From Aurantiochytrium sp. KH105 (Eukaryota; Sar; Bigyra; Thraustochytrida; Thraustochytriidae): DNA of 64,000 nt. Location: assembly GCA_003116975.1 (NCBI GenBank), contig BGKB01000129.1:1-64000 (forward strand), given 5' to 3'. Below are positions 18,867 through 51,543 of the stretch, one piece after another (position 1 is the stretch's first letter; every line of letters starts with the position of its first letter). Made by a program: the position numbers and the translations under genes. The notes beneath the pieces are model-generated. The model did not search any database, had not been told where the DNA came from, and saw nothing but the letters and a program-made list of their open reading frames with translations.

Positions 18867-18961
18867 TCAATTCACTTGAAGCATCTTTGACACCTGCGTG
18901 TGAAGCTCGGCGCACGTTTCCATGAGCGCTCGACGCTCATCCGAGGTCATGCGTGAGCAAA
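18747..18961. repeat. Tandem duplication of the last ~100 bases of the BBS4 gene
   Basis: Copies at 18747-18847 and 18860-18961 differ by one T in a T-run and one C/T substitution (CATCTGA against CATCCGA). The right-hand copy contains the last codons and stop of BBS4; the left-hand copy is the same sequence placed in its 3' flank. Twelve unrelated bases separate them. Confidence 0.9.
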
Positions 18962-20492
18962 GAATTGTGTACGATTGGAACTGTGCCCGCGCGCGCTCGC
19001 GCTCACCAATATTGTGCAATGTAGACGCAAAATTCAAATGACACACTGGATCATCAGGATCGAGCTGCAGAGCCTTTTCATATGCAGCCACAGCACTTTC
19101 TGCGTCCTCCAGACGAGAGAGCACAATCGCCAAATACATGTACGAGGCCGCAAATGAGGGCTTAAGATTGATCGATGTGCTCAAATAGTGAAAGGCTGAG
19201 GCATACTGTGTGGTGTGCATGAAGACGAGTCCGAGATTATGCGCTGTAATCCATTGAAACGGGTCCAGGTACAACGAGCGCTTGAGACATGCAATCGCTG
19301 CGACGTGACGCTCCTTGCCGAAAAAGCACATGCCAATATTGTTCCATAGCTGCGCAGAGTTGGGCGTCTTCACAGCCGCTACACGGTACTTGACCAGAGC
19401 CACGTCCATATCACTATGATCCTGAATTACCGAACCGGCAGCCAGAATTGTCTTGGGATTACGCGGATCGCGCGTCAATGAATTGCCAAGGTACTCGAAT
19501 GCCTTAAAATTTTCTCCGTCTCGCAAATACAAGAGACCGACGGTGGTGAGAAGCTCCGGGTTGTCTGGTGAGAACTCCAGCGCCTCCAAGTACACCTCGA
19601 TGGCCCGTTTCAGGTCTCCGGTCGCGGTGTAAATCTTGCCCATTTCTACAAAGGTTGAATCATGGCGTTGAATACTGTTGGCAGTTTGAAAAGCCTCCAA
19701 GGCTTTTTCGTATTCTTTGAGGAACATGAAACACAGCCCCTTATTGTGCTGGATCTCCCAGTCTTCGCGCCGTGCGCACAACATGGCCTCGTCTAAGACG
19801 TCGACCGACGCGCTATGCTTTCCCAAGAGAAAGAGGCACTTTCCCACCTGCTTTAAGTTTGCGTGATTGCTCGGGTTGAGCAGCGTCGCGGCTTGGAAAA
19901 GCTCTAATGCTTCTTGGACCTTGCCCTGCCCGCGTAAAATCAGCCCCTTGACATAGAGAGGGTATTCGCACATACCATCGCAGGACTTTAATTGCGTTTC
20001 AATTAGCCGAAGACACTCCTTGTAATCGCCTCGGGCATGGAGCAAGTGTATCAACCAGTTCACGCGCTCGCGCCCTTGACTTCGTCCGCTTTGACAGGGT
20101 TTTACTGACCGACTACTTTTCGAACTGATGGACGAACGCCCTGTTCTCCCATTTTCTTCCACCATTGTATTCTCGCGTTCATCACAGACACCTTCATTCT
20201 TTCCTTCGTGTTGATTGGAATCACAAGCATCCATGGAGTTTGCTGACGCCTCGGGCTCGATCGTCGATGCCGATGCACGAGCTTCGCCATTCGGCAATGT
20301 CGATGAAGACGACGACGACGAAGAAGAAGAAGAAGAGGTAGATCGAGCTGCACGTTTGCTCGTACGTGATGACTTACGACGTAACATGGAGGTCAGCTTG
20401 CCCACGCCGCCGCTGGTACTGGTGCCGTCATCCATTCGACTCGAGCTTTTCGACTCAGCTGGCGCTGCTGCTGTCTCAACCTTTGCCTCCAT
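18867..20492 (-). CDS. BBS4: Bardet-Biedl syndrome 4 protein (BBSome TPR subunit)
   Basis: 541 residues from the only ATG of the open frame (20492). BBS4 is a TPR subunit of the BBSome, the coat that moves membrane proteins in and out of cilia and flagella. The match to animal BBS4 is strong and collinear: NWLIHLLHARGDY (residue 145), CEYPLYVKGLILR, LFLLGKHSASVDVL, IEVYLEALEFSPDNPELLTT, WNNIGMCFFGKERHVAAI and QYASAFHYLSTSINLKP. TPRs span about residues 145-500. The N-terminal 140 residues are disordered and Ser-rich (one run of 14 Ser), an extension compared with human BBS4. The start lies eight bases from a long AAGC microsatellite. Presence of BBS4 indicates a flagellated cell stage. Confidence 0.95.
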   Translation of the reverse strand: MEAKVETAAAPAESKSSSRMDDGTSTSGGVGKLTSMLRRKSSRTSKRAARSTSSSSSSSSSSSSTLPNGEARASASTIEPEASANSMDACDSNQHEGKNEGVCDERENTMVEENGRTGRSSISSKSSRSVKPCQSGRSQGRERVNWLIHLLHARGDYKECLRLIETQLKSCDGMCEYPLYVKGLILRGQGKVQEALELFQAATLLNPSNHANLKQVGKCLFLLGKHSASVDVLDEAMLCARREDWEIQHNKGLCFMFLKEYEKALEAFQTANSIQRHDSTFVEMGKIYTATGDLKRAIEVYLEALEFSPDNPELLTTVGLLYLRDGENFKAFEYLGNSLTRDPRNPKTILAAGSVIQDHSDMDVALVKYRVAAVKTPNSAQLWNNIGMCFFGKERHVAAIACLKRSLYLDPFQWITAHNLGLVFMHTTQYASAFHYLSTSINLKPSFAASYMYLAIVLSRLEDAESAVAAYEKALQLDPDDPVCHLNFASTLHNIGERERARAQFQSYTILCSRMTSDERRALMETCAELHTQVSKMLQVN

Positions 20493-20500
20493 GATTCCTG

Positions 20501-20593
<93 letters not shown>

Positions 20594-21279
20594 ACGAGAA
20601 AGCAAGCAAGCGAGCGACTGACCTTGCACGTATCCAAGCAAGCGCGCGTCTGATCGCCAGCTCGCCCGCCTGCTCCCTTGCACGCAAACGCCCAGTAGCT
20701 TCACGCCTCTGCACCAGCTGACGTGCTTAATTGAAGCAGACTCTTCTTGCTTCTTTGCAATTATCGCACGGCGTGCTCGAATTTCCAGGCTCACAACGTC
20801 GCTTGCCGGTCAATTCGCATTGTATCATCAAAAACATAGTATACATTGTTGTCTTATTTTGAAGAAGTTCTTGTCATTCGTAACGGCAACATCTCTCTCT
20901 CTCTCTGAGTTTTCCAGGCACCAACTCCAGACGAATAACTAGAGTGGCGCGCAAAGATTGACAGTGACATACCACGCACGCTCTTGCAGGGCATGGGGGG
21001 AGGAACATGGATTGGCTTGGTTGGTCCCATGCGGTGAACTGCGTACAGCCGCCATGTGCTAAAAAGGATGGCCTGCGAGACCAAACACCACGAATGTAGA
21101 GATCGCGGCGAGGCTCCACAAAAGTCGTAGGAGCAGCGCGGCCGCTAAAGCGCTGCAGCGCGCGGACGCCGCGAGCGAGCGCACCAAACGGAGACCGAGA
21201 CCACGAACGTCCTCCTACCCTGCGAGCGCTAACCCCAGGAAGGCGGTGCGCGGAAGACACCACCAAGGCCAAACAGAGA
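20493..21279. promoter_or_regulatory. Head-to-head promoter region of BBS4 and MRRF
   Basis: Contains the AAGC microsatellite against the BBS4 start, a CTCTCTCT run (20891-20907), and ordinary sequence up to the RRF start at 21280. The left open frame through the repeat starts only at GTG and is treated as leader. Confidence 0.5.
20501..20593. repeat. (AAGC)n microsatellite, about 23 copies
   Basis: Uninterrupted AGCA/AAGC units for 93 bases, with a further degenerate stretch to about 20616. It lies in the presumed 5' leader of BBS4, ending eight bases before the ATG on the minus strand, where the complementary repeat is (GCTT)n. Confidence 0.95.
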
Positions 21280-22155
21280 ATGCTTGCCGGAGCAGCGCGA
21301 ACGCGCGCGGCGGGACGCCTGAGATGCGTCGTGATGGCGCCCTCGAGGAGCCTGAGCGTGGCGGCAGCGTCGACGACGCTGAGGACGAGGCCACGCTGCG
21401 CCACGCTGGGTCTTGTCGAGCCCGCGTGGACCGTGGCCACTGAGGCTGCCATGCGGCCTCTGTGCCAGGCAGACTGGGCCCGCGGTCTGGCCAAGAAGAA
21501 GGGCAACAAAAAGAAGAAGAACGTCACCGCCCCAGAAAGCTCCCCCGAAGCCATGGACGGCGTCGAGGCAGAGCATGGCATCTCGGCGGACCCCGAGGCC
21601 ACAGAATTCGAGCTCGAGCCGTACCGTGAGCATATGGAGCGTGTGACCTCTGGATTCCAGCACGAGCTGGCCAAGCTTCGCACGGGAAGACCCGACGCAG
21701 GTATGCTGGATCATTTGATGGTCGAGGCATATGGCGCGTCGAGTCCGCTCAATTCCGTGGCACAGGGCTCAATTCGCTCCTCCAAGCTGCTCGTTGTCAA
21801 CGTCTTTGATCAGTCGCTAGTTGGAGCTGTGGCCAAGGCTATTGAGACGGCCAACATGAACTTGAACCCTTCGGTTGAGGGCGCTCAGGTGAACGTGCCG
21901 CTGCCCAAGCTGACCAAGGAGAGTCGCGAGGCCACGGCGCGCCTTGCCCACGACCTCTATGAGAAGACCAAGGGTGCTGTCAATGGTGTGCGCCACGATG
22001 CCATGAAAAAGCTTACCAACATGAAGAAGAACAAGGATCTCAGCGAGGACCAGCATTTCGCCGAGACACAGGCGGTCGAGGAGCTCACCGACGAGTTCAA
22101 GAAGCGTATCGCCGAGATGTTTGAAACGCGCCAAAAGGAAATCATGGAGAACTGA
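21280..22155 (+). CDS. MRRF: Mitochondrial ribosome recycling factor
   Basis: 291 residues. RRF splits the post-termination ribosome together with EF-G. The N-terminal ~75 residues are Arg/Ala/Ser/Thr-rich without acidic residues early on, a typical mitochondrial presequence. A Lys-rich KKKGNKKKKN patch follows. The RRF fold occupies about residues 105-291: FQHELAKLRTGRPDAGMLDHL, VEAYGASSPLNSVAQ, the IETANMNLNPSVEG block, VPLPKLTKESREA and a long final helix with DLYEKTKGAVNGVRHDAM. The conserved Arg of LRTGR is present. ATG at 21280 gives the full presequence; an internal ATG at 21334 would also work. Shares a promoter region with BBS4. Confidence 0.93.
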   Translation: MLAGAARTRAAGRLRCVVMAPSRSLSVAAASTTLRTRPRCATLGLVEPAWTVATEAAMRPLCQADWARGLAKKKGNKKKKNVTAPESSPEAMDGVEAEHGISADPEATEFELEPYREHMERVTSGFQHELAKLRTGRPDAGMLDHLMVEAYGASSPLNSVAQGSIRSSKLLVVNVFDQSLVGAVAKAIETANMNLNPSVEGAQVNVPLPKLTKESREATARLAHDLYEKTKGAVNGVRHDAMKKLTNMKKNKDLSEDQHFAETQAVEELTDEFKKRIAEMFETRQKEIMEN

Positions 22156-22683: not shown

Positions 22684-25600
22684 CTAGCCTGAGCGCGAAC
22701 CCTGTTGACGATTGTTGCGCCGCTCCTTGCGCGCCGCCGCATCACGCACCTTCTTCACCGTTGACCCGAATTCGGAGGTAAAGGCCAAAAGCTGCTGAAA
22801 GAGGTCCTCCGGGGGCATCGCCTTGGCGCTCTCACCCACATACTGACACAGCTTCTCGTAGGCCTCCTCCATGTCCTTGAAATCACGCGAAACCTCGTCA
22901 GACTTGGGCCGCGACTGCCGCAAAAAGGGCTCCGCAGCACGCAAAAAGTCATCGTCATCTCCAGCCTTGGTCGCAGCATTGCACCCATGCTCAACGGCAG
23001 CAAGTCCCGAGCCAAGGCGCGCGACGTCCCCTGACAAGGTCTGCATGTTGCATCGGGTGGCTTCGGCAAGATCAGGAAAGTCATCCGCAATTTCAAGAAC
23101 GTGCGGGTCTTTCGCGATCAAATGCTCCACAATATACTGCAGCAGAGTTGTGTTTTGCGCAGATTTGGTCTGGCTCAGTTTCACGAGCGAGGCGAGGCGA
23201 ACACCCTGGGCCTCGCCCTTCTCCGTTCCCTTGTTGAGCTCGTTGCCGACCTTGAGGATAATACTCAGCAGGCGAGCAAAGCGCGTGGACTCACGCACTC
23301 GATTGCTCGTCGTCCGTACAAGCTCGATGCGCCGCACAGCGTCGCGAGCCATCTCGTCGAACTCTGACATGACTGTCAGCGCGCGAATGCGCTGCGAAAG
23401 GCGGGGAACACTGCCGATCGCATCGACAAAGCGCTCCGCAGGCCCAAGGAGAGAACGATCCCCGCCTCCGTCCACAAAGCTTTGCACAGCCTCGGTCTCA
23501 TCGCCCTGGGGAAGGAACTCTTGCAACGACGCCAAAGCATTTGGTCCAAATTTGCTCAGGTCCATTGCTCGCAGCGCGGCACCCACCTCGTACAGCTCTC
23601 GCCCGCCCTTCATGAGCGTTTTGGCAAAAATGCTCATGTTTTGTCGTCGTTTGGGGTCTGCGAGAAGCACCATCTCCTTGGGTTTCTTTGCCTTGTCGGC
23701 GCTCTCGTTGTCAGCTCCAAGCTTTTTCGGAGCGGCCTTGTTGGAAAACTCCGACTTGAGGTCGCCAAAGACTTCTGCAATCTCGATGTCACTGCTGTCG
23801 ACGCCACTGTCCCAAATGGTGCCTTCCGTGTCTTCCAGTACGTCCCAATGCACGCGTTTCGTGTCTGACTTGGGACCCGTGACTTTCTTCTTTTTCACTG
23901 TGGCGGCCACTTTCGTCGTCACCTTGGTGGTAGTGGTGGTTTTGCTCGAATTTTGGTCGCCTGCGGAAGCTGCAGCGTCCTTGCGCGCCTTTTCTGCAGC
24001 GCGTTTCTTTTCGGCCTCGCGCTTGTCCAAAAGCATGGGGAGAAGACCAAAGGCACAAAAGGTTTCGACATCATGAGCCTGCCAAAGTTCTTCACCAGTC
24101 AATTCGACCACTTTGGCGCGTCGGTCACCCGCAACGCCACCTCGCAGTGTTGACACACCTGCGCTTTGCTGCGCGCCTGAAGAGCCGGCCGTGGATACAG
24201 TTGCTGGGAGAGCTCCCGAACCATAGCTTCCAGCTCCGGGAAGGGTACCGACCGGTCCATAACTGGCCATTTCTTCGCCACTTCTGTACTCGTGGCCAAA
24301 GCCTTGACTTCCTTGAGCTCTGGAGCGATGATCGGGACCTCCTGCTCCATATGTGCCGCCACGTTGGCTTTCCTGGGCGCTAGACGTCCCGAAGCCAGAT
24401 CCGGTACCATTACCCATGCCGTCGCCGAAACTATTGCCCGTGTTGAAGCCAGAACCACTGCCAAAGTCAGAACTCGAACCATTGCCAGAACCAGGACCAT
24501 TACCAGAACCAGAACCAGTACCGGTACCAGCACCAGTACCAGCACCGGCACCAGCACCAGCACCAGCACCAGCACCACCAACGCCACGACCCATGCCTGA
24601 ACCGTCTTTGGAACCAGCACCAGGAAGATCTGACGGATACCCAGCGGAATCATTTCCATTGCCGTGTTGAAATCTGTAATTGTCAAAAAAGGAGAAGATG
24701 CTGCTTCCCGAGGCTGGGACCTGTGGACGGTCGTCAAAGTCCGACAAGCCTGTGTGTGCTGGCTTTATCAAGGAGCTTGAGGAGGAAGAAGACTCTGTCA
24801 GAGTTGACTGTGGCTGAGCGCTAGCATTCGCATCTGCGTCACGTGTCCGTCGGGTCGTCGTGAAATCAAAACGATTAACCACCGCGGGCGACGTGTCTTG
24901 TCCATTGCCACTTCCTTCTCCTCCTTTTCCTCCCTTGTGTTGCCCATACGTGTATGCTCCGTGACCCGAGGAGCGTTGTTCTTTAAGCTCCTTTTGTTTC
25001 GATTGCATTGTGGACATCCAGGTCGGCCGGGGTTCCCTTGCTCCGGTCTCAATACCTTTGGCATGGGTGGTGTCATCAGGATGCGGAGGAGGTAATGGCG
25101 AGGTGGCTTTGACCTCGATGAGATCGTGATCGCCTGCTTCCTCACTCTCCTCCGCACCCAAGTCGAAGCCACCCTGTGAACCTTCGAAATTATTGCTGCT
25201 GTGTTTGTTAGCAAATTCAATGGGAGACCTTGGCAGCATGTTGCGTTCGTCTTGCAGAGTCGAACGAGGAGAATGGCCTCTTCGGCGAAAGATGCTACGC
25301 GAAGCGCCAGGAAAGGCATCGCGACGCGCCCTCGAAGCGTCCCTTGATTCATGCACATCCGCATTACGCAAAAGCAAGTCCTGCTCCTCGAGACTTTCCA
25401 GCAAATGGTGTACCTCGCGAGGAAAGCGTGGCGCAAAACGTGACTGCAATTCCTTGGCCGAAATGCTGCCATGCGAATTAACCGTTTGCATGACGCGCGA
25501 TTGAAAGCTCATTGATGGCGCATCATGTACCTGATGCATGCGATCAAGAGTGCGCTGCACCAGGAAGCGGTCGTATCGCCGCGATTCATCGGCGAAGGAA

Positions 25601-26402
25601 GAACCACCTGAAGTACTGGAGACCAATGCTGGCTGGTCAAAAGTGCGGGCATACGTCGACGGCAGAGCCTCTGCATGGGAAGAGGAGAGCCCGTCTTCGG
25701 TGGTGCCGGCCTCACTGTCGGCAAGTTCGCCCCTCGCGCGTGCAGTGCGCACCGTGTCGAGGAGATTGAGCGCCTCAGCGGTGTCAGGATGATTTTTGCC
25801 CACGGTCGCGCGGCGTGCAGCGTATGAGCGTTCGCACAACTCATGGGCGGCGCCCAGGTTCCCAAGCTGATATTCAGTGAAGCCGAGACTCAATTCGACC
25901 TCGGCAACTTCGAGAGATTGCGGACCAAAAATGAGCTCTCGCACCTGCCTGGCAAGAGCGAATTCCCGACGCGCTTCGGTTGGTTTACCGTGCAAGCGCA
26001 ATAAAAGACCAAGATTGTACCGACTGTCGGCTGTGAATCGATGATTCGTGCCCAATTGCTCGATGCGAATGGAGAGGGCTCGTTGGCAAAAATCGATGGC
26101 CTCCGCGTATTGACCGCGGTGCGTGTAGAACGCGGAAATGACGTTGTAGCAGTCACTTGTAGCAATGTGATTCGGCCCAAAGAGGTTTTCGGTCTTTCGC
26201 ATGTATTCTGCGTAGCGGACTCTCGCCTCTTCATACTCCTTTGCGATCATGTATAATTCCGCAAGCATCGAGTACAAGGCCACGTTTGTCGTTTCGTCCT
26301 CGTAAGGTTCTGACCTGACGAGTTTTTCACACTGTCGAAGGTAGAATCGCGCTTCTGCAAAGTCGTCCAACTTAAAGTACGCCCTTGTCAGCACCATGCA
26401 TT
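22684..26402 (-). CDS. Formin (FH2) with N-terminal kinesin-light-chain-like TPRs, main exon
   Basis: Formins nucleate and elongate unbranched actin filaments. This exon has an ATG at 26397 and would encode 1237 residues alone, but it opens in mid-TPR (VLTRAYFKLDDFAEARFYL), so an upstream exon at 27259-27583 is proposed; joined length 1347. In exon-2 numbering, residues 1-220 are TPRs of the kinesin-light-chain type (e.g. YAEAIDFCQRALSIR). Residues 220-840 are disordered, with a Gly/Ala/Thr-rich GAGAGAGAGTGTG stretch in the middle and no proline-rich FH1 that I can see. Residues about 845-1210 are FH2: KRVHWDVLED, NMSIFAKTLMKGG, GNELNKGT and LLQYIVEHLIAKDP match the lasso-to-post architecture. 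The C-terminus is a short basic tail (RKERRNNRQQGSRSG). The TPR+FH2 pairing differs from GTPase-binding FH3/DAD formins. Confidence 0.87.
24480..24600. repeat. ACCAGCACCAGTACC-type short tandem repeat in formin coding sequence
   Basis: Hexanucleotide ACCAGC/ACCGGT/ACCAGT units repeat for over 100 bases and encode alternating Gly with Ala, Thr or Ser on the minus strand. This occupies the linker position where other formins carry FH1. Confidence 0.8.
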
Positions 26403-27258
26403 CTGTGTTTGTGCAGCGATGTAGAATAAAATGAAAAGGAAGAGGAAGCCCTTGGTCAGTAATCGAGTGCGTTACGCCTGTTGTCGTGCCTGTCTGCTCG
26501 TTGCGGGGAATTCAGAGAATAAATATACAAGAGGAAGAAAAAAAACAAAGCAAGCGGTTGTGTGTGTGCTCAGATCGTCTGTCTGCCCAGTGATCTGGGC
26601 ACTGGAATGTCGCTACATCAGGGCTCACAAGGACGCAAGTGACGTTTGCTTCCAAATCTCATGCAGCCAAGCGATCGTTTCCAACCAGCCATAAGCGCAA
26701 GATCTTGAATGGATGGCACACGCATTTGCATGGTTGTCCCTGTGTTGCTCTCAGGACACCGAAACAATGTGAGATCCGATGCAAGCACCTCCAATTAGTC
26801 CCCTCTTCGTAGATTGAGCATGAGTCGCCAACTCCCCTTGACCTAAACCGGTGCCCCCCGCTACACTTTTCATGCTTTAAGATCACCTCGCATGGGAAGG
26901 AATCCCGAGGGGTCTAGTCCGAGAAATGTGACGCAAAGAAGGGATTTGAGCAACCGTTGGGAGCGCGTGCGCAGCCTCGGTGTATTAGGTTAGGGGGACA
27001 CAGAGAAATTCTCTGCGCCGGATTGCGTTGAGGCTGGACTAGGCCATGGAATGAGCGCTCATGTATGAGGGCAAATGGAAGGGAGAAGAGGGGAAGGTAG
27101 GGCTTGCGATAAGATCCACGGACGTCTCGGCGACGGTCAACATCATTGCACGATTTCTGGATGAACGTGGCTTCCCTACGCAACGAGCGACTCCAAGCAG
27201 GACCCCGAGAGGGTTCAAGGGTTGACATGACAAGCTATGTGTTCAAATGCAAACGTAC
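26403..27258 (-). other. Proposed 856-base intron of the TPR-formin gene
   Basis: On the minus strand the proposed donor is CTG|GTACGT (intron begins 27258) and the acceptor is ACACAG|AATGC (intron ends 26403), preceded by a pyrimidine-leaning CCTTTTCATTTTATTCTAC stretch. The splice keeps phase 1 (CCT G / AA TGC ATG) and joins EALP to ECMVLTRAY, completing a TPR. Inside I see no other gene; short open frames are unconvincing. Confidence 0.5.
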
Positions 27259-27583
27259 CAGGAAGAGCTTCGCTCGTGGACCCAAGTCCTTGTGTCTTCA
27301 TGATCCGGACGCTTTCGAGCGCCTTGGTGATCGCTGAGCGCGCATTGCCTTGCGCAAGGCATTTTACGCTTTCGGCGCGAAGCGAGTCGCGCTTCTCGAG
27401 AGGGGTGGTCAGGTCGCCAGACAGCCAAAGCTTGCCCTGCGAGATTCCTGCGTGGCTACGGCGGCCTTTGCGCTCGGACGCTGCCGTGGTCGCGTACAGA
27501 AACTGGCTTGGCAACCTCGTGGCCTCGGCGCTGCTGGCGGCGTGCGCAGCCGCCAGCTCACGGCCTCGGCCTCCCTGGCGCAT
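27259..27583 (-). CDS. Proposed first exon of the TPR-formin
   Basis: Starts at the ATG at 27583 (an A at -3), encodes 108 complete codons plus one base, and ends at a GTACGT donor. The protein opens with a basic, Ala-rich segment and ends LAQGNARSAITKALESV, a TPR-like helix pair, followed by GLGSTSEALP. Read on into the next exon this gives a continuous TPR. The exon is inferred from frame, phase and domain continuity, not from any transcript; the alternative is an unspliced start at 26397. Confidence 0.5.
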
Positions 27584-28481: not shown

Positions 28482-29456
28482 CTAAAGTTCGTCGCGATGG
28501 AAAGCGCGGTGCACCTTGCCATCCAGAAAGGTCTTGAACTGATGGGCTTTGTCGCAAGAAAACCACATGGAAAAGGCATAGCGCGTCCCCCGGGTGACGG
28601 GCGTGAAGCGGTGAGGGTTTTCTTGACCTGAAGAAAAGGTGATGAAGCGACCACGTCGAGGCCGAACGACCGTGGGATTGCCCTCATCGAGGAAAACGAA
28701 CTCGCCACCATCAAAATCCTCGCCATGCGTTGTGAGATAGACGAGTCCGCTCATGTCATAATGCGGCGTGTTGTCCTTGTCGACGTGTGGATGCCAGTAC
28801 TCGTCGTGGAGCTCAAGTGGCGTCCACGACTCGTTACCAACGATGCGTGCTACAAAGGTGGGAGCGGTGAAGTAGAGCGTTTCGAGATGATTGACCTCCA
28901 TGATCCGTTCTCTAATGCGATCAAACATTCGTGCGTACACCTTGTACTCTTCGCTCGTGAACGAGACAGGGGAATCGCCGCCGTAAATGGTTTGCACGCC
29001 CATACCGTCCTTCATGAAGCCGCCATTCACGTCAAGAATGGTTGGACCGCCCGTGTCTCCTCGGCTGCTGGCCATACCCTTTTCGACCATGCGCAGGAGG
29101 ATATCGATTTCTTCGTCCGAGATGAAGGCGTCCTCAACATGGCGCCAGGTTTCGGGAACGTGACAGCCCTCGACGAGGCGCTCTCCGTTCGGCAGGGGTG
29201 CTCGCTGCACGGCTTCACGCCATGGCGTCTCGAGCACGTCCGCCGTCACAAGGCGGCCTCCGGCGTTGCTGCTCCCCGTCGCAAGGCTCGAGAGCGTGAC
29301 GGCAAGGGCCACGACGGCGAGGGCCGCCATGCTCGCGATGGAGGTCTTGCTCCGGGGCGACTGCAGGAGCTTTTTGCCACGCGCACTGCGCGACGACCGC
29401 GCCCGCGCCATCTCTTTAGCGCGGGCCTGTGCCCTCTGGATTTCCGCCGACGCCAT
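28482..29456 (-). CDS. OGFOD3: OGFOD3-type prolyl-hydroxylase-like 2-oxoglutarate/Fe(II) oxygenase, ER type II membrane protein
   Basis: 324 residues from the ATG at 29456 (further upstream the frame has only a TTG). Residues 1-38 are basic and cytosolic, residues about 39-60 form one membrane segment, and the rest would be lumenal. The C-terminal half is a double-stranded beta-helix oxygenase: HDEYWHPHVD supplies the iron ligands H224 and D226, ENPHRF the distal H282, and TRGTRYAFSMWF the 2-oxoglutarate-binding Arg. The order and spacing of GDTGGPTILDV, HDEYWH and EDFDGGEF match human OGFOD3 closely. The last four residues are RDEL, a KDEL-type ER retrieval signal, which fits a lumenal C-terminus. 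The substrate of the OGFOD3 family is not established; protein hydroxylation is the family expectation. Confidence 0.88.
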   Translation of the reverse strand: MASAEIQRAQARAKEMARARSSRSARGKKLLQSPRSKTSIASMAALAVVALAVTLSSLATGSSNAGGRLVTADVLETPWREAVQRAPLPNGERLVEGCHVPETWRHVEDAFISDEEIDILLRMVEKGMASSRGDTGGPTILDVNGGFMKDGMGVQTIYGGDSPVSFTSEEYKVYARMFDRIRERIMEVNHLETLYFTAPTFVARIVGNESWTPLELHDEYWHPHVDKDNTPHYDMSGLVYLTTHGEDFDGGEFVFLDEGNPTVVRPRRGRFITFSSGQENPHRFTPVTRGTRYAFSMWFSCDKAHQFKTFLDGKVHRAFHRDEL

Positions 29457-30163
29457 CGCCGTTCGTGGCGTGTGGTTGCCCGCCAATGGCGATCTGGGAT
29501 TGGGCGGTTGGTCGCGTGCGTAATTGATCAACCAATCATCGAACGAAGATTTTTTGACAGGGGCGGGTACGAGACCGCGGCGAGGCTCAGTGTCAGTGCG
29601 TTGCGTTCATGCATCCGCCTGCCGCTGTTTCTGCACGCGTCATGCGATAGCCTCTGTCGACGGCAGCTGCAGCTTGAGCCCCAGCGGTGAAACTTGCTGC
29701 AGCTGGCATCAGCAGCAGTGCTGCTGATGCCAGCAGTGCAGCGAGCGACGCCAGTGGGGACTCGCAGCGAGGCGGAGACGTGAAATGGAGACCTGCATCT
29801 CCTGTGCGGTAGTACAACGGCGGCTTTGTCAGGCTGATCGATACTGTTACGAGAAAATCGGAGCATGCTGTGCTGCAGCTGCTGGTGATGACTGCGACTG
29901 CGGGCATCTTCCATTCTGACAGTGAATCCGAATCCGATCTCGAATTGGAACGTGTAAATACGAATCAAGCGAACCACACCATTGGTCAATTCTAGAAGCC
30001 ATAGGCTCACCCTGGCCCAGGTCTAGTTTGATGATGATAGATAGATAGACGATGGATGATAGTGAGAATAATAGATTTCGTTGATCTTAGGCCTAGGTTA
30101 CATGTCTAGGAGTGACACACGAGGATTTCGGCTGTAGCGAGTGGTCTTGACCAAATCGAAGCA
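29457..30163. promoter_or_regulatory. Region upstream of the OGFOD3-like gene with a large palindrome
   Basis: Between the OGFOD3-like start and the Pth stop (same strand). It contains the 31-base perfect palindrome at 29703-29733, several PstI-like CTGCAG/CAGCTG clusters, a GATAGATA run (30030-30048) and a TAGGCCTA palindrome (30088-30095). No protein gene is supported. Confidence 0.5.
29696..29742. repeat. Long inverted repeat / hairpin
   Basis: CTGGCATCAGCAGCA (29703-29717), a single G, then its exact complement TGCTGCTGATGCCAG (29719-29733). Outside, GCTGCAG pairs with C..TGCAGC after a two-base bulge, extending the arms to about 22 bases. RNA from either strand would fold into a nearly uninterrupted stem with a minimal loop. 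Confidence 0.9.
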
Positions 30164-34512: not shown

Positions 34513-37500
34513 TTATCGGGCTTTCTTCTTGGACCTTTTCGCTTCGTCCGACGCAAAAGTATCCATCGTAGCTTCCCCAGATTCGATGGCATGGTCCAGC
34601 GAGGACGATTCATTCGTCTTTTTCAGGTCTTCTTGGCGCTTTCGCTCTAAAATGTCAAATTCTTCCGCAGTTGTGGCCCTCTTCCACACGCGAATGACCT
34701 GTTTGCGCGTCCCGTGATCCGTCCACACTTCGTCTGGACGCTGAATAATCCCAAGCTCGCGCCGTAACGACTTTGCAAGTTGCCACGGAATCTCTGGCTT
34801 GTGTGCCTTGCACGCGTTTGCAACCATTTTCATTGGACATTTTCCCGTGTCTGCGAGAAGATCGTCCATGAGCTGCTCAAAGGCAGCCTCCAAGGCCTCC
34901 TGCTCCGAACCATCTTCGCTTCCAAGATAGCCTTCGGTCCTCGTCTGGACCTGGATCTCGGCACGCCGCTCGTTGTGCTCATCGACCCCTTCGCTGGACA
35001 CTGCCAAACGTTCTGTTCCCTCATGTTCCTGCGTCGACCGTGCTGATGGTTTCGCATGTTCATTCTCGTCGGCGTCCTCTTCAGCGTGTGCCTCTACTTC
35101 TGATTTTGCCCCGTATCCCGCGGTCTCATCTGCTTTGCGAGGTGTATGCGCGATAACTGTCGGCATGACAATCCCTTGACCAGGATGCTGACCTGCACTG
35201 GGGGCGGAACCTTGACTTCTACTCGAACCCTTTGGTTGATGTGGACTCGTGCCAAGGCCATGAGGAGAACCATTTGGCAAACTTTTGAAAGCTCCCGCAT
35301 TGTGACGTAAATTACTACTGCTACGGCTACCGCCGCCGCTGCTGCTGGTGCTACTGCTGGTGCTACTGACTTCGCTACTGCTCACGTCACTGCTCGTCTC
35401 ACTCATGTCGCCATTTTGCAATGCGGCATGGGTTTTCCGACCAGCGATCGGCTCGGCAAGCTTGGCCTCCGCAAGACGAGGACTCACAGCATGATCATTA
35501 CGCTGCAAAGACAAAGAAAGCTGAGGAGGCATTGTCAGATTTGGCATTGTCTTGCTCATCGCACCAGGCCTTGGTGATGTCAGCGCGACATGCGTTGCGT
35601 TTTGCGGCGACGCTTTAGAGGTCCCGAGAAGCTTTGGCGCTGACTTGGTCATCTCGGCATCAATACCAGTCGCAGGGGCAGCATCATCAGCGAGCGCAGC
35701 CAGAACAAGATTGAGCTTTGCGTGAAGGTCTGCAATTTGCGACTCAAGACGCCGCTGGTTCACCGTCACTTGCTCAATTCGCGCTCTTTCGAGCGCTGCC
35801 GCGTCTTCCTTTGACGTGTCACGAGGCTTTACATCAGGCTCTCCCAACGGAGCTCCTGGGCCATAGAGCGCCCATAGGTACATGGCCACCGGGTCAGTAA
35901 AGAGCTGTGAAAGATCAGCATAATTGAAGGTCGCTACAAGGGGAGCGACCTCAAGCTTGCGAAAGGGGACCACATTGCCTTCTCGCGGAAGACTCAGCAC
36001 CTCGTGCACCGTGATGAGCTCGTTGTATGTTGCTTCAAGCGAGGGTCTCACCCGCTCCGCGTCATCAGGCGTGAGAAAGGCGCACATCGGATCGACTTTC
36101 GAAGAATGTGGCTTCCCCTTGACACAGCCCAGCGCCTTCTTCATTTGAAACCACGTCGCATGCATGTCTGCACTAATCGTATCGTCCAGCATCTTGTCAT
36201 CAGCACCTCGCTGGACCTCCTCGTAAGCTCCAAGGACGATACCAAGGAGCACGTTGAGGAGGAGAATTGCAGCGATAAACATGAACCCAAAGTAATACAT
36301 GGAAATTGGCAAAAAGGCCCACCATGTGAGTTGGTCTGTGTTCACCAAATCAAGAAACTCGCTGTAGTCCACGCCCACGGTCATGAGAACCACGACAGAG
36401 CCAAATGCCGAAATTGGCGTGCGGAAATATTCACTCTTGTTTGCAAACATGATCCAACCGACCACGACATAGCCGCAGACGACGAGGAAAAGAATCGTTC
36501 CAAAGTGATAAAGTGTGGTCCACGCGCGACTGATTGTCCGCGAAACAATTCCCAGGCGACCATGAAAGGATATACAACGGAAAAGGCGGAAAAAGGCCAC
36601 GAGTAAGCACATGGTGTTGCAAATGTCAAAGAGCGAATCGAGGTTTGCCACCTTGAGCAGGTACGCGGCAAGTAGGACCTGGTCAGGAAGCTCACCGCTC
36701 GCGGCGTCGAGGCTGGCAATGTAGGTGACAACCTCGTTTCGCAGCACGTACACACGAACTTGCAGCATAATCACCAGAACTGCCAAGGTAAGTCCGAAGA
36801 CATCCACCAGGTTCCAGAAGCTTGTCGCGTAGTCCGTCATGCCCTCCCACACGCTAGTCAATAAGTGGCCCCCGCCGCCATGTTGACCTCGTTTCGCGAT
36901 TTTGCGACGATAGAGCGCTGCTTTGACGCAAAGGAAGACTTCAATGGCCTCACGCATCACCTTGACGGTGACAGCAAGTACAAAGAGAATTTCGAGAGTC
37001 ACTCGAAATTGCCACGGCATGCCCCCTGCAAGGCGCACGGACTCGCTCAGTGTATCAAAGACACCTGCCCATACAATAACGTCATGCTGCATCCCTCCGG
37101 TCTGCTGTAGCAGGAAGCGGATTTGAATACTCGAATACAAATGCGTGTTGGGATTGTACAGACTCAACAGAACTATGGTCTCTGCCGTGCTCGCATTCAA
37201 CCAGTCTCCCGCGCGCAGATCGCTTGTGCGCTGCAGAATACGCGAGCGATTCACGTACTGACGTGCTCCGGAGGTTGTCATCTGGACAACCGGCAAGGGC
37301 TCAAAGATAAAGTTCGTGCGCGAACCCTGCACTAGAGGCGTTGGTCCTTGCAGCATTGACGACATTTCTGTATCGACGTCGCTGCTCAAGAAGGCGTTCA
37401 TCTGTGGCCATCGTGGACAATCCGCGAAGAATTTGGCCTCTGTCGCTTCACAGTCCACCGTAAAGTTTTTGCGACGTTGCGCCAAAGTCACCCCTGACAC

Positions 37501-38022
37501 GATCTTGTTAAAGGCCAAAACAGTGCCCTCACCGTTCCAGAACCTTGCGACAATGACCTCATCGAACCATGCCCAAAAGTCTGCTGCAGAGGAGATATCC
37601 TCAATGCTGTGGCCCTCGCCCCATTGCTGACGTTCAATCCACTCACGGGATTCTGCTACGAGCTCTCCACGATTCGTGCGGGGGTAGCAAAGATTGATGC
37701 CGACATAAATCATCAAAAAGCAGATATAGGCCATCAAGGCACAGCACTTGTTTTTGTGACGGATTCGTCGTTCGAGTTTTTGAAGCTCCTCGTCCAAGGG
37801 AACACGCGCTTCGCCTTCAAAGCGTGGACCGTCATACATGCCGCCTCGAGAGGCTTCGAGGGCTCGCCATTCATCAAAGGAAAGTTTTTGATCGTGGTCC
37901 TTGTCCATGGCCTGGAACTTGGCCAAAGCCTGTTGTTCTGCAAGTGATGCGGCATCTCGGGCTGGCGACCCTAACATTGGTAGCGCAGGTATTTGCGGCT
38001 GAGGAAATGCTGCTGATGACAT
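34513..38022 (-). CDS. PKD2: Polycystin-2-like cation channel with N-terminal EF-hand
   Basis: 1169 residues. PKD2/TRPP channels are six-helix Ca-permeable cation channels, often in the ciliary membrane. A canonical EF-hand loop DKDHDQKLSFDE spans residues 40-51. TM1 is CCALMAYICFLMIYVGINLCY (residues about 93-113), followed by a large extracellular polycystin domain with several N-glycosylation sites and cysteines. Five more membrane segments lie between residues about 340 and 620: FWNLVDVFGLTLAVLVIML (voltage-sensor-like part), FLVVCGYVVVGWIMFA, the pore loop FGSVVVLMTVGVDY, and FIAAILLLNVLLGIVLG as the last helix. The C-terminal half is cytosolic: a coiled coil (QVTVNQRRLESQIADLHAKL) and a long disordered tail ending in a basic cluster. 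In animals the EF-hand is C-terminal. Shares a promoter region with CFAP184. Confidence 0.87.
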   Translation of the reverse strand: MSSAAFPQPQIPALPMLGSPARDAASLAEQQALAKFQAMDKDHDQKLSFDEWRALEASRGGMYDGPRFEGEARVPLDEELQKLERRIRHKNKCCALMAYICFLMIYVGINLCYPRTNRGELVAESREWIERQQWGEGHSIEDISSAADFWAWFDEVIVARFWNGEGTVLAFNKIVSGVTLAQRRKNFTVDCEATEAKFFADCPRWPQMNAFLSSDVDTEMSSMLQGPTPLVQGSRTNFIFEPLPVVQMTTSGARQYVNRSRILQRTSDLRAGDWLNASTAETIVLLSLYNPNTHLYSSIQIRFLLQQTGGMQHDVIVWAGVFDTLSESVRLAGGMPWQFRVTLEILFVLAVTVKVMREAIEVFLCVKAALYRRKIAKRGQHGGGGHLLTSVWEGMTDYATSFWNLVDVFGLTLAVLVIMLQVRVYVLRNEVVTYIASLDAASGELPDQVLLAAYLLKVANLDSLFDICNTMCLLVAFFRLFRCISFHGRLGIVSRTISRAWTTLYHFGTILFLVVCGYVVVGWIMFANKSEYFRTPISAFGSVVVLMTVGVDYSEFLDLVNTDQLTWWAFLPISMYYFGFMFIAAILLLNVLLGIVLGAYEEVQRGADDKMLDDTISADMHATWFQMKKALGCVKGKPHSSKVDPMCAFLTPDDAERVRPSLEATYNELITVHEVLSLPREGNVVPFRKLEVAPLVATFNYADLSQLFTDPVAMYLWALYGPGAPLGEPDVKPRDTSKEDAAALERARIEQVTVNQRRLESQIADLHAKLNLVLAALADDAAPATGIDAEMTKSAPKLLGTSKASPQNATHVALTSPRPGAMSKTMPNLTMPPQLSLSLQRNDHAVSPRLAEAKLAEPIAGRKTHAALQNGDMSETSSDVSSSEVSSTSSSTSSSGGGSRSSSNLRHNAGAFKSLPNGSPHGLGTSPHQPKGSSRSQGSAPSAGQHPGQGIVMPTVIAHTPRKADETAGYGAKSEVEAHAEEDADENEHAKPSARSTQEHEGTERLAVSSEGVDEHNERRAEIQVQTRTEGYLGSEDGSEQEALEAAFEQLMDDLLADTGKCPMKMVANACKAHKPEIPWQLAKSLRRELGIIQRPDEVWTDHGTRKQVIRVWKRATTAEEFDILERKRQEDLKKTNESSSLDHAIESGEATMDTFASDEAKRSKKKAR

Positions 38023-40668: not shown

Positions 40669-43600
40669 TTACTCGAGGCCAAGATCCTTGCGATACTGTT
40701 TGGTCTCCTTGAGTGTAAGACCATCCTTGAGCCAGATACCGGAGCTCCCGCGCGACTTGTAACGCTTTTTGGAGCTTTTAAAGATGACCTCGAGATCGCA
40801 CGGGGGAATCTTGCCAAAGATCTTATCGGGATCCCGACGCTCATCAAAGTATTGACGATGCAGCGCACGCTGCAGGTTCGCCTTTTGCGCCCATTCTGGC
40901 ACGGGCTTTTGGGGAGTTTCGCTCTCTGAGGGACTCGAAAGCGAGTCGTCATCATCGTCGCTTGCGTCGGTGAGGGCGTAGTTGTCTGCTTCTCGCCGCT
41001 CGTCCAGCTGGTCATCTCGCTCAATGTCGCTCTCTGCCACCGCCGAGCTCTCTTCGCGCTCCTTTTCGACCCGGTTCATGGAGGGCGCAATATCGACGAG
41101 CGAATGCTTTTGGGGCTTGCTTGAGAGATCCGCGGAACTCGAGCTTTCCACGAAATGTGCGACTTCTTTCTGCTGTGGCGATGGCGGCGACGGAGGCGGC
41201 GGCAAACCGGGACTGCTTATCTCTTTTGTGATGTTCGTGACAACAACATTCGGCTTTGCTATTGCAAATCCTGTCGCGCCTGATGATACGGCAGCACCAC
41301 CACCGCCACTTGTAGACTGTGCGGAAGAGTTTCCACTTGTCGACACTGCGACAGGAGGGGCGATCTTCTTCTTCAAGAAGCGGAACGAGCTCGACGACGA
41401 AGTTGTCGACGATGCAGGCTGTGCAGTCTCCTCTGTTGATTCATTGTCGGCCTGCGCTTGGCGGGACTTCATTCGCATCTCCTGCATGAGACGGAGTTTC
41501 TCGCGACGCTCGTGTTCCAGACGCTCCATCTTCTCTTTGGCAATCTGAGCCTTCTTCAGCGCTGGTACCACACCCTTTACTCGGGGCGGTTTGCCCGAGG
41601 TTGTTTTATCGACAGGGATCTTCTTCACGAACGAGGTCAGACCGCGGATGATGTTACTTGGTACCGTCCCACGCGGCGGCACCCCGACTTCCTTCTTGGC
41701 CGATGAAGGTCCAGGGGTCTTTGTGGTGTCATCCATGGAGCCCGACGAGACTTCGTGGGTTAGCTGGGATGAGGGGCGAGTCACTGTTGCCATCGGGATC
41801 TTCTCGTCGCTGGATTTGTTCGAAATCGCAGAAGTGGACACAGATCGGGTGATAGAGACGGTAGGGCTTTCCTCCTTAGCTGCAGCGATTTTCGCGGATG
41901 GGGCGTTGCGCATACGGTCAATGGCTCGTTTCCGGGCCTCTTCGCGCATTTGCTCTGCTTCTTGGAGAACGTCTTGCGATGTAGGTGCCGTGCTCGACAT
42001 ACGGCGAATACGATTCTCCATCTCCTCGAGTAGTTGCTGTTTACGACCCCCTTCGCTGGAGTCCGCCCGAGCATCCTCGGCCCCTTGTCCTGGTGTGTTG
42101 GATGACGACGATGACGAGGTGAAGCTCGAGCGCGCGACACCCATGCGAGACCCACGTTGCGAGTTGCCAGGCTGCGACGCGATGCTTGGCGAGCTCTCGA
42201 GCCCAGCAGAAGAAACTGAAGCAGACCGAATCTTGCCCTCACGAACACGCAGTGACTTGACCATCGCTGGCGAAGGCGGCTCGAGATCAGCTTCTGCCGG
42301 CTCCACGGACTGCCGCTGCGTCGCATCGAGCGAATTCTGAGCCGATTGTGATAATGAAGACTGACGACTTGCCAGACTTCGCACAGTAGTGGTGCCGGAT
42401 GGCTGTGGTGTGAGCGTTTTCGATCCGCTTGCAAGAATGGACTTGGCAACACTCGACACAGACGCAGATTTTGGCGGCGGCGGCGGTGTCATTGCCCGCT
42501 CGTGCTCATCCGAAAGTTTTCGCCGTTTCGTTTCCTCTCCGTCTCGGCCAGAAGGTGCCGATTCCAAAGAGTTTTTGCGTGTCGAATCGGGAGTTTGCGG
42601 TCCATTGGCAGAACCACTGGCCTCGAGGCTAGTTGCAAGATTCGAGGGCCGAACCGATGGCGATGCAGACGTCATTGCCTCGATGTCTTCATCTTTCGAT
42701 TCTGGAGAGGGCGGTGTACTTGCTCTGGAAAGCGCATAAGGTCGCGCAGGTAAGGCAGGTGGATGGTCTTCTTCTTGGGCGTCCTGCTTGGAAATATCCT
42801 TCTTGCCGGGCGGTGTTTTGAAAGCAGGGGATTTGTTCTTTTCGTCCGCAGTCTTTTGCTCCTCCTCATCGACTTGCACGCTGCTCTTGGCTGCATCTTC
42901 TTTCGGCGTGGAAGAATTTTTAACAATCGCGGCGACTGTGCCTTCGGCATCGTCATCAGTTGCTGTTGTCAGAGACTGGCTCTGGAGTCTATGTGCCTCA
43001 TCGATTTCCCCTTGATCGTTGCCTTCGGCCTTGGACGCAGCGTCGGCGGACTGACTATTTTCATGATCATCTTTCTCTGAAGAAGCAGGGCCGGCAGTTT
43101 CCGCTAGAGCTGCAGGGCCAGTGTTATCAGAGGGTTCGGTACCAGTAACGTCGATGTCAGCGTCGCTGTCGTCATGTTTTTCATCGTTCTGGTCATCCTC
43201 GTCATCGCCAGCATCGCCCGCAAGCTCTTGCTCACGTTCCCATGCCTCTTTTGCCTCACGGTTAGCCTCGGTGGCCATATCCGAGGCTAAAAGCTCGGCA
43301 ACATCCGCCTTTAAACGATAACCCTTGAAAGAGATGCCGCGCTTTTTAAGTGCAGCCTTAATTTTGGCGACGGTGAGCTGCGTGCATTCATCGATGAAGT
43401 CGGCAGAGGTTTTCGGTTGAGGAGGTGGACCAGCCCCAGCGACGCGCAGCTTTTTGCCGGCGTCGCTCTGGTTGCTGATTCGCTTGAGCTCGGCCACCCC
43501 CTCGTCCGACTTACGCTTGCGGTTTGAGGACGGAACGGGCGCAAAGGAGCCTATGGCAATGTTGGCGACGGCCATGGATGACTCGCGGCGCTTGATGTTT

Positions 43601-43941
43601 CGCTTGACGTCCTCGGCGGTCTCTGCGCTGACGCGCCGATTAGGGGCGTCCGCGGCCCCATTTTCCTTGTCCTCCTGCTTGAGCACCTTGTGCATGACGT
43701 CTTGGTCATAGGTGTTAAACTTTGTTCGGTTTGTCGACTTGTCGCGCAACACCTTGGGGTCGCAGTCCTTGATGTTGGACAAGATGAGTCCTCCACGCTC
43801 TGCAAACTGTCCACGAGCCCATTGCAGGTGCTTCTCGAGCTCTCTGTCGAGCTCCCGCTTCTTGCTCTCCCCCAGCCGAGACAAGTTGTCCAGGATTTGG
43901 TTCACGATATTGCCCTCGCCCGTCTGCTGCTGGGTCATCAT
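40669..43941 (-). CDS. INCENP: INCENP-like inner centromere protein (chromosomal passenger complex)
   Basis: 1090 residues from the ATG at 43941 (MMTQQQ); the open frame goes on to a GTG upstream. INCENP is the scaffold that binds and activates Aurora kinase in the chromosomal passenger complex, acting at centromeres and the spindle midzone. The call rests on the C-terminal IN-box, residues about 1010-1075: KPVPEWAQKANLQRALHRQYF, FGKIPPCDLEVIF, KRYKSRGSSGIW, including the Ser-Ser pair that Aurora phosphorylates in the TSS motif. The N-terminus (residues 5-90) is helical and could be the survivin/borealin-binding part. Near residue 190, KIKAALKKRGISFKGYRL resembles a SAP-type DNA-binding unit. 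The middle is disordered with a Lys/Arg/Glu single-helix-like stretch (residues about 780-840). Tail-to-tail with CFAP184. Confidence 0.86.
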   Translation of the reverse strand: MMTQQQTGEGNIVNQILDNLSRLGESKKRELDRELEKHLQWARGQFAERGGLILSNIKDCDPKVLRDKSTNRTKFNTYDQDVMHKVLKQEDKENGAADAPNRRVSAETAEDVKRNIKRRESSMAVANIAIGSFAPVPSSNRKRKSDEGVAELKRISNQSDAGKKLRVAGAGPPPQPKTSADFIDECTQLTVAKIKAALKKRGISFKGYRLKADVAELLASDMATEANREAKEAWEREQELAGDAGDDEDDQNDEKHDDSDADIDVTGTEPSDNTGPAALAETAGPASSEKDDHENSQSADAASKAEGNDQGEIDEAHRLQSQSLTTATDDDAEGTVAAIVKNSSTPKEDAAKSSVQVDEEEQKTADEKNKSPAFKTPPGKKDISKQDAQEEDHPPALPARPYALSRASTPPSPESKDEDIEAMTSASPSVRPSNLATSLEASGSANGPQTPDSTRKNSLESAPSGRDGEETKRRKLSDEHERAMTPPPPPKSASVSSVAKSILASGSKTLTPQPSGTTTVRSLASRQSSLSQSAQNSLDATQRQSVEPAEADLEPPSPAMVKSLRVREGKIRSASVSSAGLESSPSIASQPGNSQRGSRMGVARSSFTSSSSSSNTPGQGAEDARADSSEGGRKQQLLEEMENRIRRMSSTAPTSQDVLQEAEQMREEARKRAIDRMRNAPSAKIAAAKEESPTVSITRSVSTSAISNKSSDEKIPMATVTRPSSQLTHEVSSGSMDDTTKTPGPSSAKKEVGVPPRGTVPSNIIRGLTSFVKKIPVDKTTSGKPPRVKGVVPALKKAQIAKEKMERLEHERREKLRLMQEMRMKSRQAQADNESTEETAQPASSTTSSSSSFRFLKKKIAPPVAVSTSGNSSAQSTSGGGGAAVSSGATGFAIAKPNVVVTNITKEISSPGLPPPPSPPSPQQKEVAHFVESSSSADLSSKPQKHSLVDIAPSMNRVEKEREESSAVAESDIERDDQLDERREADNYALTDASDDDDDSLSSPSESETPQKPVPEWAQKANLQRALHRQYFDERRDPDKIFGKIPPCDLEVIFKSSKKRYKSRGSSGIWLKDGLTLKETKQYRKDLGLE

Positions 43942-44561
43942 CGTCCCAGTCCGCGCCCGCGCTTCTTGCCCGCGCGACGCCAGGAGATAGATCTCGCCGC
44001 GCCGCCAGGGAGCCGAGCTCGCGACACGCGGGTCCTGCCGCACTGCGCCGCGCCGCGCCGCGTCGCACCGCGCCTCCGCGCCCTCGGGCCGCGCTCTCGC
44101 TCGCTCGGCGTCCGCTCACCTCGCTTTCGGGTCTGCGCCGCGACTGTTTCGACCCGGCGGTTTTACAATTCCTTAGGCCCGTTCATCGCGGTTAGGCCTC
44201 TTTGCCTCGCCTAGCGCGCTGCTACGGCCGCCTACCTGGCTCGCCACGTTGACCCGGCAAGGCGAGAGGGGCGTGTTCTCGGAGGCCGCGAGGGCGCGAG
44301 ATGCAGGGGCCAGATGTGCAGATCTATCTGGCAGCCTAGCAGAGGGCGTGCGTCGTTGCTTGGTGCGCTCGCCTATGCTCTGGTGGCGAAGGAATGGCGA
44401 GTGTCGTCGATTATCGTCACCGATCGATCCCGTATCGGGACAAGAAAAACGGAGAGAGAGGCCAGCCAAGTCGAGTGAAGAACCAGAGATTGATGAACAA
44501 GGCAGAAGCAGGCAAGCGATAACAGCGAGCAAGGGTAGTTTATACTTCTTTATGAGGAGGC
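43942..44561. other. Region between INCENP start and ferlin stop
   Basis: GC-rich next to the INCENP start (CGCCGCGCCGCGCCGCG, 44046-44066), then ordinary sequence with TAGGCC motifs at 44174 and 44192. Presumed INCENP promoter and ferlin 3' flank; no gene seen. Confidence 0.45.
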
Positions 44562-51002: not shown

Positions 51003-51543
51003 GCGGGTCAATCACTCCAATACCCAGCCCCCTTACAGTCAAAAACAGCTTTTATCTCCGAGCGAGACGCCGCCGGGGGCTAGACAGCGCAGGCCTCTCC
51101 TCTCGTCTTTGCCGTCAGTGCTGCGAGTCCTGCAGCGCAGCCGATGGCGCTCGCAAACAATGGCTCCAAGAGGTTTTGGGGCGGTTTAGGGTCAAGTGGG
51201 AGCGCGAGCACAGCGAGGCTATACAGTGTTCGGTCCGTGCCGAGACCTTTGGTGGGGGAAAACGAGCCAATCGAGAGTTTTCGTACAGCGCGAGTGCCGA
51301 TAGAACACCGTGCGAAAGTACGCTCGTTGACTTGACTGTGAGCCAAGATATGGCAAGACCTGCCGGGGGGGGGGGGAGAGTCGTGACAGTAACTTAGGCG
51401 TACACCTTGACGTGGTGTTAAGCATCAGGTATCACAATAACCTAAAACCACCCGTAGGCCAAAAGCAAGATGGAGTCAAGGCTGATAGGAGATAGAACGT
51501 AGAAACTGTAGCAGAGCAACATTAACATGGCATTGTACAGATC
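51003..51543. other. Region between ferlin start and transporter stop
   Basis: Ferlin promoter side plus 3' flank of the transporter gene. It has a run of 12 G at 51365-51376, which is prone to sequencing error. Nothing else recognised. Confidence 0.4.

What the first reader, a model, noticed from the sequence alone, without database searches (positions are those of the whole stretch)
22684..27583. Kinesin-light-chain-type TPRs fused to a formin FH2 domain, with a hidden first exon
The FH2 end and the TPR start are read directly. The exon 2 frame begins in mid-TPR, and a GTACGT donor and CAG acceptor 856 bases apart join in phase to complete the repeat. This replaces the usual GTPase-binding regulatory domain by a cargo/scaffold repeat and lacks an obvious FH1. 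If confirmed, it suggests actin nucleation recruited by TPR partners.
Basis: partly seen in the sequence, partly recalled or inferred. Interest (0 to 1): 0.7.

Follow-up and report, generated by a model that had tools for sequence, protein, structure and literature searches.

The report
A TPR-formin like the Toxoplasma invasion formin
This gene, apparently of a labyrinthulean (slime-net) protist, encodes a predicted actin-building protein with the same two-part plan, an anchoring repeat domain and an actin-assembling domain, as the protein that starts actin growth for gliding in Toxoplasma, which hints that this design may be older than those parasites.

Summary
On the minus strand, 22684-26397 is one ORF with kinesin-light-chain-type TPRs and a complete C-terminal FH2 domain. 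The proposed 5' exon (27583-27259; GTACGT donor, CAG acceptor) joins in phase. It has coding-type codon use, no indel and identical splice sites in the second haplotype, and extends an alignment to the TPR protein ZMYND12 across the junction (29 bits joined, 13.6 without). Profile scores gain almost nothing, its repeat is very degenerate, and there is no cDNA.

In reverse searches of the host genome this gene and its twin rank first for the FRM1 TPRs (81 and 78.7 bits, next 48.9) and FH2 (128.1, next 107.3). Like FRM1 it has N-terminal TPRs, a C-terminal FH2, no FH1 and no GBD/FH3. FRM1 TPRs anchor it in the preconoidal P2 ring. The likely mechanism is the same: TPRs dock the formin on a scaffold and the tethered FH2 grows actin. 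New member of a known kind, apparently outside alveolates.

The parts
22684..27583 (-). TPR-formin gene, coding span from first ATG to stop (1347 aa when spliced)
   Evidence: the aligned twin at G000:C216 gives 1342 aa with the same exon limits
27259..27583 (-). proposed exon 1 (108 codons plus one base)
   Evidence: open frame, coding score highest in this frame of six, no indel against twin, extends ZMYND12 alignment (vs 66)
26403..27258 (-). proposed 856-bp intron, GTACGT...CACAAACACAG, pyrimidine-rich tract upstream of the acceptor
   Evidence: donor and acceptor identical in twin; stops in all six frames, best coding score -0.149 bits/codon
22684..26402 (-). exon 2
27266..27391 (-). degenerate TPR 1 (joined residues 65-106), in exon 1
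   Evidence: 42-residue register (by eye); weak in the register test; ZMYND12 alignment
25780..26402 (-). TPRs 2-6, kinesin-light-chain-type, 42-residue period; part of it homologous to FRM1 821-1003
25345..25581 (-). 79-residue folded domain of unassigned family, perhaps winged-helix-like, between TPRs and linker
   Evidence: AlphaFold2 mean pLDDT 89.5; 79 of 79 residues identical in twin; sub-threshold winged-helix Pfam hits
24468..24577 (-). Gly/Ala/Ser/Thr-rich repetitive linker
   Evidence: TRF arrays
22768..23889 (-). FH2 domain
   Evidence: PF02181 251.3 bits on the genome, 3.1e-73 on the protein
23629..23631 (-). Ile at the position of Bni1 I1431 / TgFRM1 I4713 (joined residue 1033)
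   Evidence: alignment read by eye; residue numbers from PMC2951370 passages
23164..23166 (-). Lys at the position of Bni1 K1601 / TgFRM1 R4867 (joined residue 1188)
   Evidence: alignment read by eye; residue numbers from PMC2951370 passages

Best explanation
A two-exon gene for an FRM1-type formin. TPRs at the N-terminus (six by register) dock the protein on a fixed scaffold; a flexible glycine/serine-rich linker tethers a C-terminal FH2 dimer, which nucleates and elongates unbranched actin there. It needs no Rho-GTPase release because it lacks GBD/FH3, and it feeds actin without a classical FH1. Shown: the domains, their order, the missing GBD/FH3 and FH1, purifying selection on TPR and FH2, retained actin-contact residues, reciprocal best match to Toxoplasma FRM1 on both domains among the sequences held. 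Inferred: the splice, common descent of the fusion with FRM1, docking by the TPRs, actin activity. The docking site is unknown; the base of the ectoplasmic net (bothrosome) or the flagellar base are the natural candidates in a labyrinthulean.
For: phmmer of exon 2 against the PDB: chain 9ya0_BA 'Formin 1' E=3.2e-53, TPR segment 68.6 bits to residues 821-1003 and FH2 118.1 bits to 4645-5035; next DAAM1 108.1 bits for FH2, kinesin light chains at most 47.4 bits. Reverse searches of the whole host genome: FRM1 TPRs hit this gene and its twin first (81 and 78.7 bits, third 48.9, of 177 matches); FRM1 FH2 hits them first (128.1 bits, third 107.3, of 11). Three other formins of the genome have DAAM1 or mDia1 as best PDB hit and do not list FRM1 (two further loci, L013 and L014, not tested so). 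Between haplotypes the FH2 has 21 synonymous and 0 nonsynonymous codon changes, the exon-2 TPR part 14 and 2. FRM1: TPR domain embeds in the P2 ring, FH2 unresolved and perhaps flexible, nucleates actin (PMC12819142 passages and section 15; PMC10412601 passages); four TPRs, no canonical FH1, no DID/DAD, FH2 at the extreme C-terminus (PMC2951370 passages).
Against: The FH2 link to FRM1 alone is modest: tree support 88/90 with a long-branch warning, and without either partner the other's place is open. Only one FRM1 and two animal FH2s were used as tree references, so a nearer TPR-formin in another lineage could exist. TPRs are repeats and prone to convergence. Parts of two of four CLU-domain gene pairs of the genome were compared with the PDB and neither listed a chain of the P2-ring entry, so no partner of the ring is shown. 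No transcript, no protein, no localisation.
Confidence: 0.72

Rival explanations
1. Independent fusion: a labyrinthulean kinesin-light-chain-like TPR gene was joined to an FH2 gene, so the likeness to FRM1 is convergent in architecture, and only the mode of action (TPR docking) is shared.
For: The genome is rich in such TPR stretches (230 matching stretches) and in odd formins (FYVE-FH2, Ank-WW-FH2), so domain shuffling is common here; the FH2 tree is weak once either partner is removed.
Against: Both domains pick FRM1 independently, and the TPR margin over the next TPR gene of the genome is about 30 bits.
Confidence: 0.2
2. The gene starts at the exon-2 ATG (26397), or has another first exon; the proposed exon 1 is 5' UTR or another transcript.
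For: Profile score of the TPR block is hardly improved by exon 1; its repeat scores below a non-TPR block; exon 1 has no Pfam hit of its own at E<0.1; FRM1 similarity begins only at exon-2 residue 40.
Against: An out-of-frame ATG lies four bases upstream of the exon-2 ATG (AATGCATGG) and the exon-1 ATG has A at -3; exon 1 has coding codon use and continues the ZMYND12 alignment.
Confidence: 0.15
3. The two domains belong to separate genes merged by an assembly or reading error.
For: None found.
Against: One uninterrupted ORF, and a second contig (the other haplotype) has the same ORF; the region is 94.5% identical.
Confidence: 0.01

Closest known systems
Toxoplasma gondii formin 1 (FRM1, TGME49_206430; PDB 9YA0) and apicomplexan FRM1 orthologues
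   Same: N-terminal TPR block, C-terminal FH2, no GBD/FH3, no DAD reported, no canonical FH1; best match of both domains (PMC2951370 passages)
   Different: 1347 aa against 5051 aa, so a far shorter linker; an extra 79-residue folded domain after the TPRs (presence in FRM1 not tested); host has no conoid (recalled)
Diaphanous-related formins (mDia1, DAAM1)
   Same: FH2 domain, actin-contact Ile and Lys
   Different: no GBD/FH3 or FH1; lower FH2 score than FRM1 in phmmer (DAAM1 108.1 vs 118.1 bits)
Kinesin light chain TPR domain
   Same: 42-residue TPR type (TPR_10, TPR_12)
   Different: lower score than FRM1 (at most 52.5 vs 73.1 bits); followed by FH2 here
ZMYND12 (axonemal TPR protein; 'axonemal' recalled)
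   Same: aligns to TPRs 1-3 across the exon junction, E=1.3e-5
   Different: likeness confined to about 100 residues; no FH2 (recalled)
Ank-WW and PTEN formins of other stramenopiles
   Same: formins with lineage-specific N-terminal domains (PMC2386819, section 7)
   Different: different N-terminal domains; TPR is named there only in the legend of a supplementary table among domains found in a single species, species not seen

Membership tests
Formin (FH2 protein) | complete FH2 domain | tested here: met
   PF02181 model 2-371 of 372, E=3.1e-73
Formin (FH2 protein) | actin-contact residues of Bni1 I1431 and K1601 | tested here: met
   Ile 1033 and Lys 1188 in the alignment, mapped through FRM1 I4713/R4867 (PMC2951370)
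FRM1-type TPR-formin | TPR block homologous to that of FRM1, N-terminal to FH2 | tested here: met
   68.6 bits to FRM1 821-1003; reciprocal best in the genome
FRM1-type TPR-formin | FH2 groups with the FRM1 FH2 | tested here: inconclusive
   reciprocal best, tree 88/90 with long-branch warning; open without partner
FRM1-type TPR-formin | no canonical FH1, no GBD/FH3; FH2 at the C-terminus | tested here: met
   the FH2 match ends 27 residues before the stop
FRM1-type TPR-formin | TPR-mediated anchoring in an apical ring | not testable with these tools
   needs localisation; parts of two of four CLU gene pairs listed no chain of 9ya0
Diaphanous-related formin | GBD/FH3 domain | tested here: not met
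   no Pfam match at E<=1, while two other formins of the genome match
Diaphanous-related formin | DAD motif | tested here: inconclusive
   a regular expression found none, but it found none in the two GBD-FH3 formins either, so it is insensitive
Kinesin light chain | TPR block closest to KLC | tested here: not met
   FRM1 73.1 bits, best KLC 52.5 bits

The most novel reading that the evidence does not exclude
The TPR-FH2 fusion of the apicomplexan invasion formin is older than alveolates: a stramenopile-alveolate ancestor already anchored a formin by its TPRs at one cell pole or at the flagellar apparatus. Apicomplexans then placed it in the preconoidal ring, while labyrinthuleans may use it where the actin-filled ectoplasmic net leaves the cell.
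Probability: 0.35. Interest if true: 0.75.

Novelty: new member of a known kind. Interest (0 to 1): 0.52.

Why it matters
[quoted passage not shown] A relative with the same plan, one locus per haplotype, apparently in a labyrinthulean and with a short linker, would allow the ancestral job of the TPR anchor to be tested outside an apicomplexan parasite. It also offers a candidate for the actin of the ectoplasmic net.

Tried and rejected

Pfam as proof of the splice: rejected, since trimmed exon 2 scores as well as the joined block. In the 99-residue junction test only the proposed join gave a TPR_12 match across the junction (14.7 bits, E 0.035, below cut-off); 0 of 7 control joins did, these 7 chosen by me from 35 other donors with at least 40 open codons. 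P2-ring partners: tried through CLU-domain genes (8 matches, by their scores four pairs); parts of two pairs (C228: 1968 aa of an open frame of 3488; C18: 1825 of 1958) listed no chain of 9ya0 at E<=0.001.

phmmer did not list FRM1 for three other formins at E<=1e-8, yet plain BLAST gives C67 against FRM1 114-115 bits, against 134-146 for the window gene; so the phmmer contrast overstates the FH2 difference. Twin copies of the other formins were not scanned with Pfam separately.

Host identity: not proven. A PfaA-type polyunsaturated fatty acid synthase is encoded in pieces (best 930.4 bits over model 6-1035 of 2582, below the 1010.1-bit cut-off, perhaps because it is split; 11 of 14 control genomes also ring, none over cut-off), which fits a thraustochytrid; Ank-WW formins fit stramenopiles (PMC2386819, section 7). 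That thraustochytrids use a PUFA synthase was seen in the abstract start of PMC11951076 (search listing).

Prior art: the listings (16 of 16 papers; 25 of 42; 25 of 127; 10 of 57; none found; 1 of 1), titles and abstract starts, showed no paper on a TPR-formin in a stramenopile; unlisted papers were not seen. [quoted passage not shown] this anticipates part of the claim.

Full report
What is there. The window lies on contig C129 of a 76-Mb genome, eukaryotic by its genes, that is held in two haplotypes or homeologues: five of the six formin loci are found twice. On the minus strand one ORF, 22684-26397, encodes TPRs and a complete FH2 domain. A second copy on contig C216 has the same ORF and domains; the region is 94.5% identical. 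Between the two, the FH2 has 21 synonymous and no nonsynonymous codon differences and the exon-2 TPR part 14 and 2, whereas about three quarters of random changes would be nonsynonymous: both domains are under strong purifying selection. Of the 41 nonsynonymous codon differences in exon 2, 39 lie outside those two parts.

The hidden exon. The proposed exon 27583-27259 joins in phase with 26402. Points in favour: a codon score in the proposed frame (+0.076) like that of exon 2 (+0.067) and above the other five frames (-0.300 to +0.018), with 0 of 2000 base shuffles as high; no indel and 6 substitutions in 325 bases against 29 substitutions and 28 gap columns in the roughly 400 bases upstream; ATG, donor and acceptor identical in both copies; a repeat register of 42 residues that continues across the junction (by eye), the proposed donor ranking 2nd of 79 GT sites, the first being interrupted by stops; and ZMYND12 aligning colinearly across the junction with 29 bits, against 13.6 bits when exon 1 is left out. 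A start at the exon-2 ATG is made less likely by an out-of-frame ATG four bases before it. Points not in favour: the exon-1 repeat scores -39.4 in absolute terms, below the -29.6 of a non-TPR block and just below another offset (-37.0), so it is a very degenerate repeat at best; no gain in Pfam score; three of six exon-1 codon changes nonsynonymous; divergence not significantly below the intron (P=0.14); no transcript data. I hold the junction likely, about 0.8.

What it is. The best PDB match of the protein is Toxoplasma formin 1, in two colinear stretches, TPR to TPR and FH2 to FH2. The reverse test was run over the whole host genome. Among 177 matches to the FRM1 TPRs the window gene and its twin lead by about 30 bits; among 11 matches to the FRM1 FH2 they lead by about 21 bits. 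Three other formins of the genome prefer DAAM1 or mDia1. In an FH2 tree of 12 rows the gene joins FRM1 with support 88/90, but both branches are long and the placement is open when either is removed. So the two-domain agreement, more than the FH2 tree, carries the claim. The architecture agrees too: TPRs first, FH2 at the C-terminus, no canonical FH1, no GBD/FH3, as described for TgFRM1 (PMC2951370, passages).

How it most likely works. In Toxoplasma the TPR domain embeds FRM1 in the preconoidal P2 ring, while the FH2, which nucleates actin, is unresolved and may be flexible (PMC12819142, passages and section 15; PMC10412601, passages). The same division of labour is the best reading here: TPR anchor, a linker of about 600 residues rich in glycine and serine, FH2 with both actin-contact residues kept (with PMC2951370). 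What the anchor binds is unknown. Labyrinthuleans build an actin-supported ectoplasmic net from a bothrosome (PMC12221091 and PMC6326421, passages), which is a natural place to look, but nothing here shows it. A test for one ring partner through CLU-domain genes was negative in the two of four gene pairs examined, each in part.

Novelty. TPR-formins are known from Apicomplexa, and one earlier paper states without detail that FRM1 homologues occur in all 26 alveolate, stramenopile and green algal species studied (PMC4501334, section 53). What is new is a TPR-FH2 relative, supported on both domains, in what appears to be a labyrinthulean stramenopile. I call it a new member of a known kind. Its interest is evolutionary: it makes the age of the invasion formin testable.

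Noticed in passing
25345-25581 (-): Unassigned 79-residue domain of the formin, confidently folded (pLDDT 89.5), identical in both copies, no other match in the genome below E 0.7; perhaps winged-helix-like.
   Followed up: partly
L012, L013, L014 (contigs C28, C54, C7): Other formins of the genome: FYVE-FH2, a 1999-aa open frame with FH2 and otherwise only CCDC53 and PgaA_barrel Pfam matches (probably low complexity), and Ank-WW-FH2; two further ones (L010, L011) are GBD-FH3-FH2.
   Followed up: partly
18867-20714 (-): 615-aa ORF of canonical TPRs near the formin; not compared further.
   Followed up: no
21280-22155 (+): Ribosome recycling factor (PF01765, E=1.2e-49) with an N-terminal extension, probably organellar; tail to tail with the formin.
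   Followed up: no
28482-29531 (-): 2OG-Fe(II) oxygenase (PF13640), upstream neighbour; leaves about 900 bases for the formin promoter and 5' UTR.
   Followed up: no
34513-38022 (-): Polycystin-type cation channel (PF08016, PF20519).
   Followed up: no
40669-44043 (-): INCENP-like protein: Aurora-binding region near the C-terminus (PF03941, E=1.3e-17).
   Followed up: no
44562-51011 (-): 2149-aa ferlin-like ORF with five C2 stretches and a FerI match just under its cut-off.
   Followed up: no
58833-61499 (-): Protein kinase fused to a C-terminal FYVE finger.
   Followed up: no
27259-27364 and 26209-26402 (-), joined residues 74-173: First TPRs resemble ZMYND12 (E=1.3e-5), recalled as an axonemal protein; a possible hint of a flagellar origin of the anchor.
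   Followed up: partly
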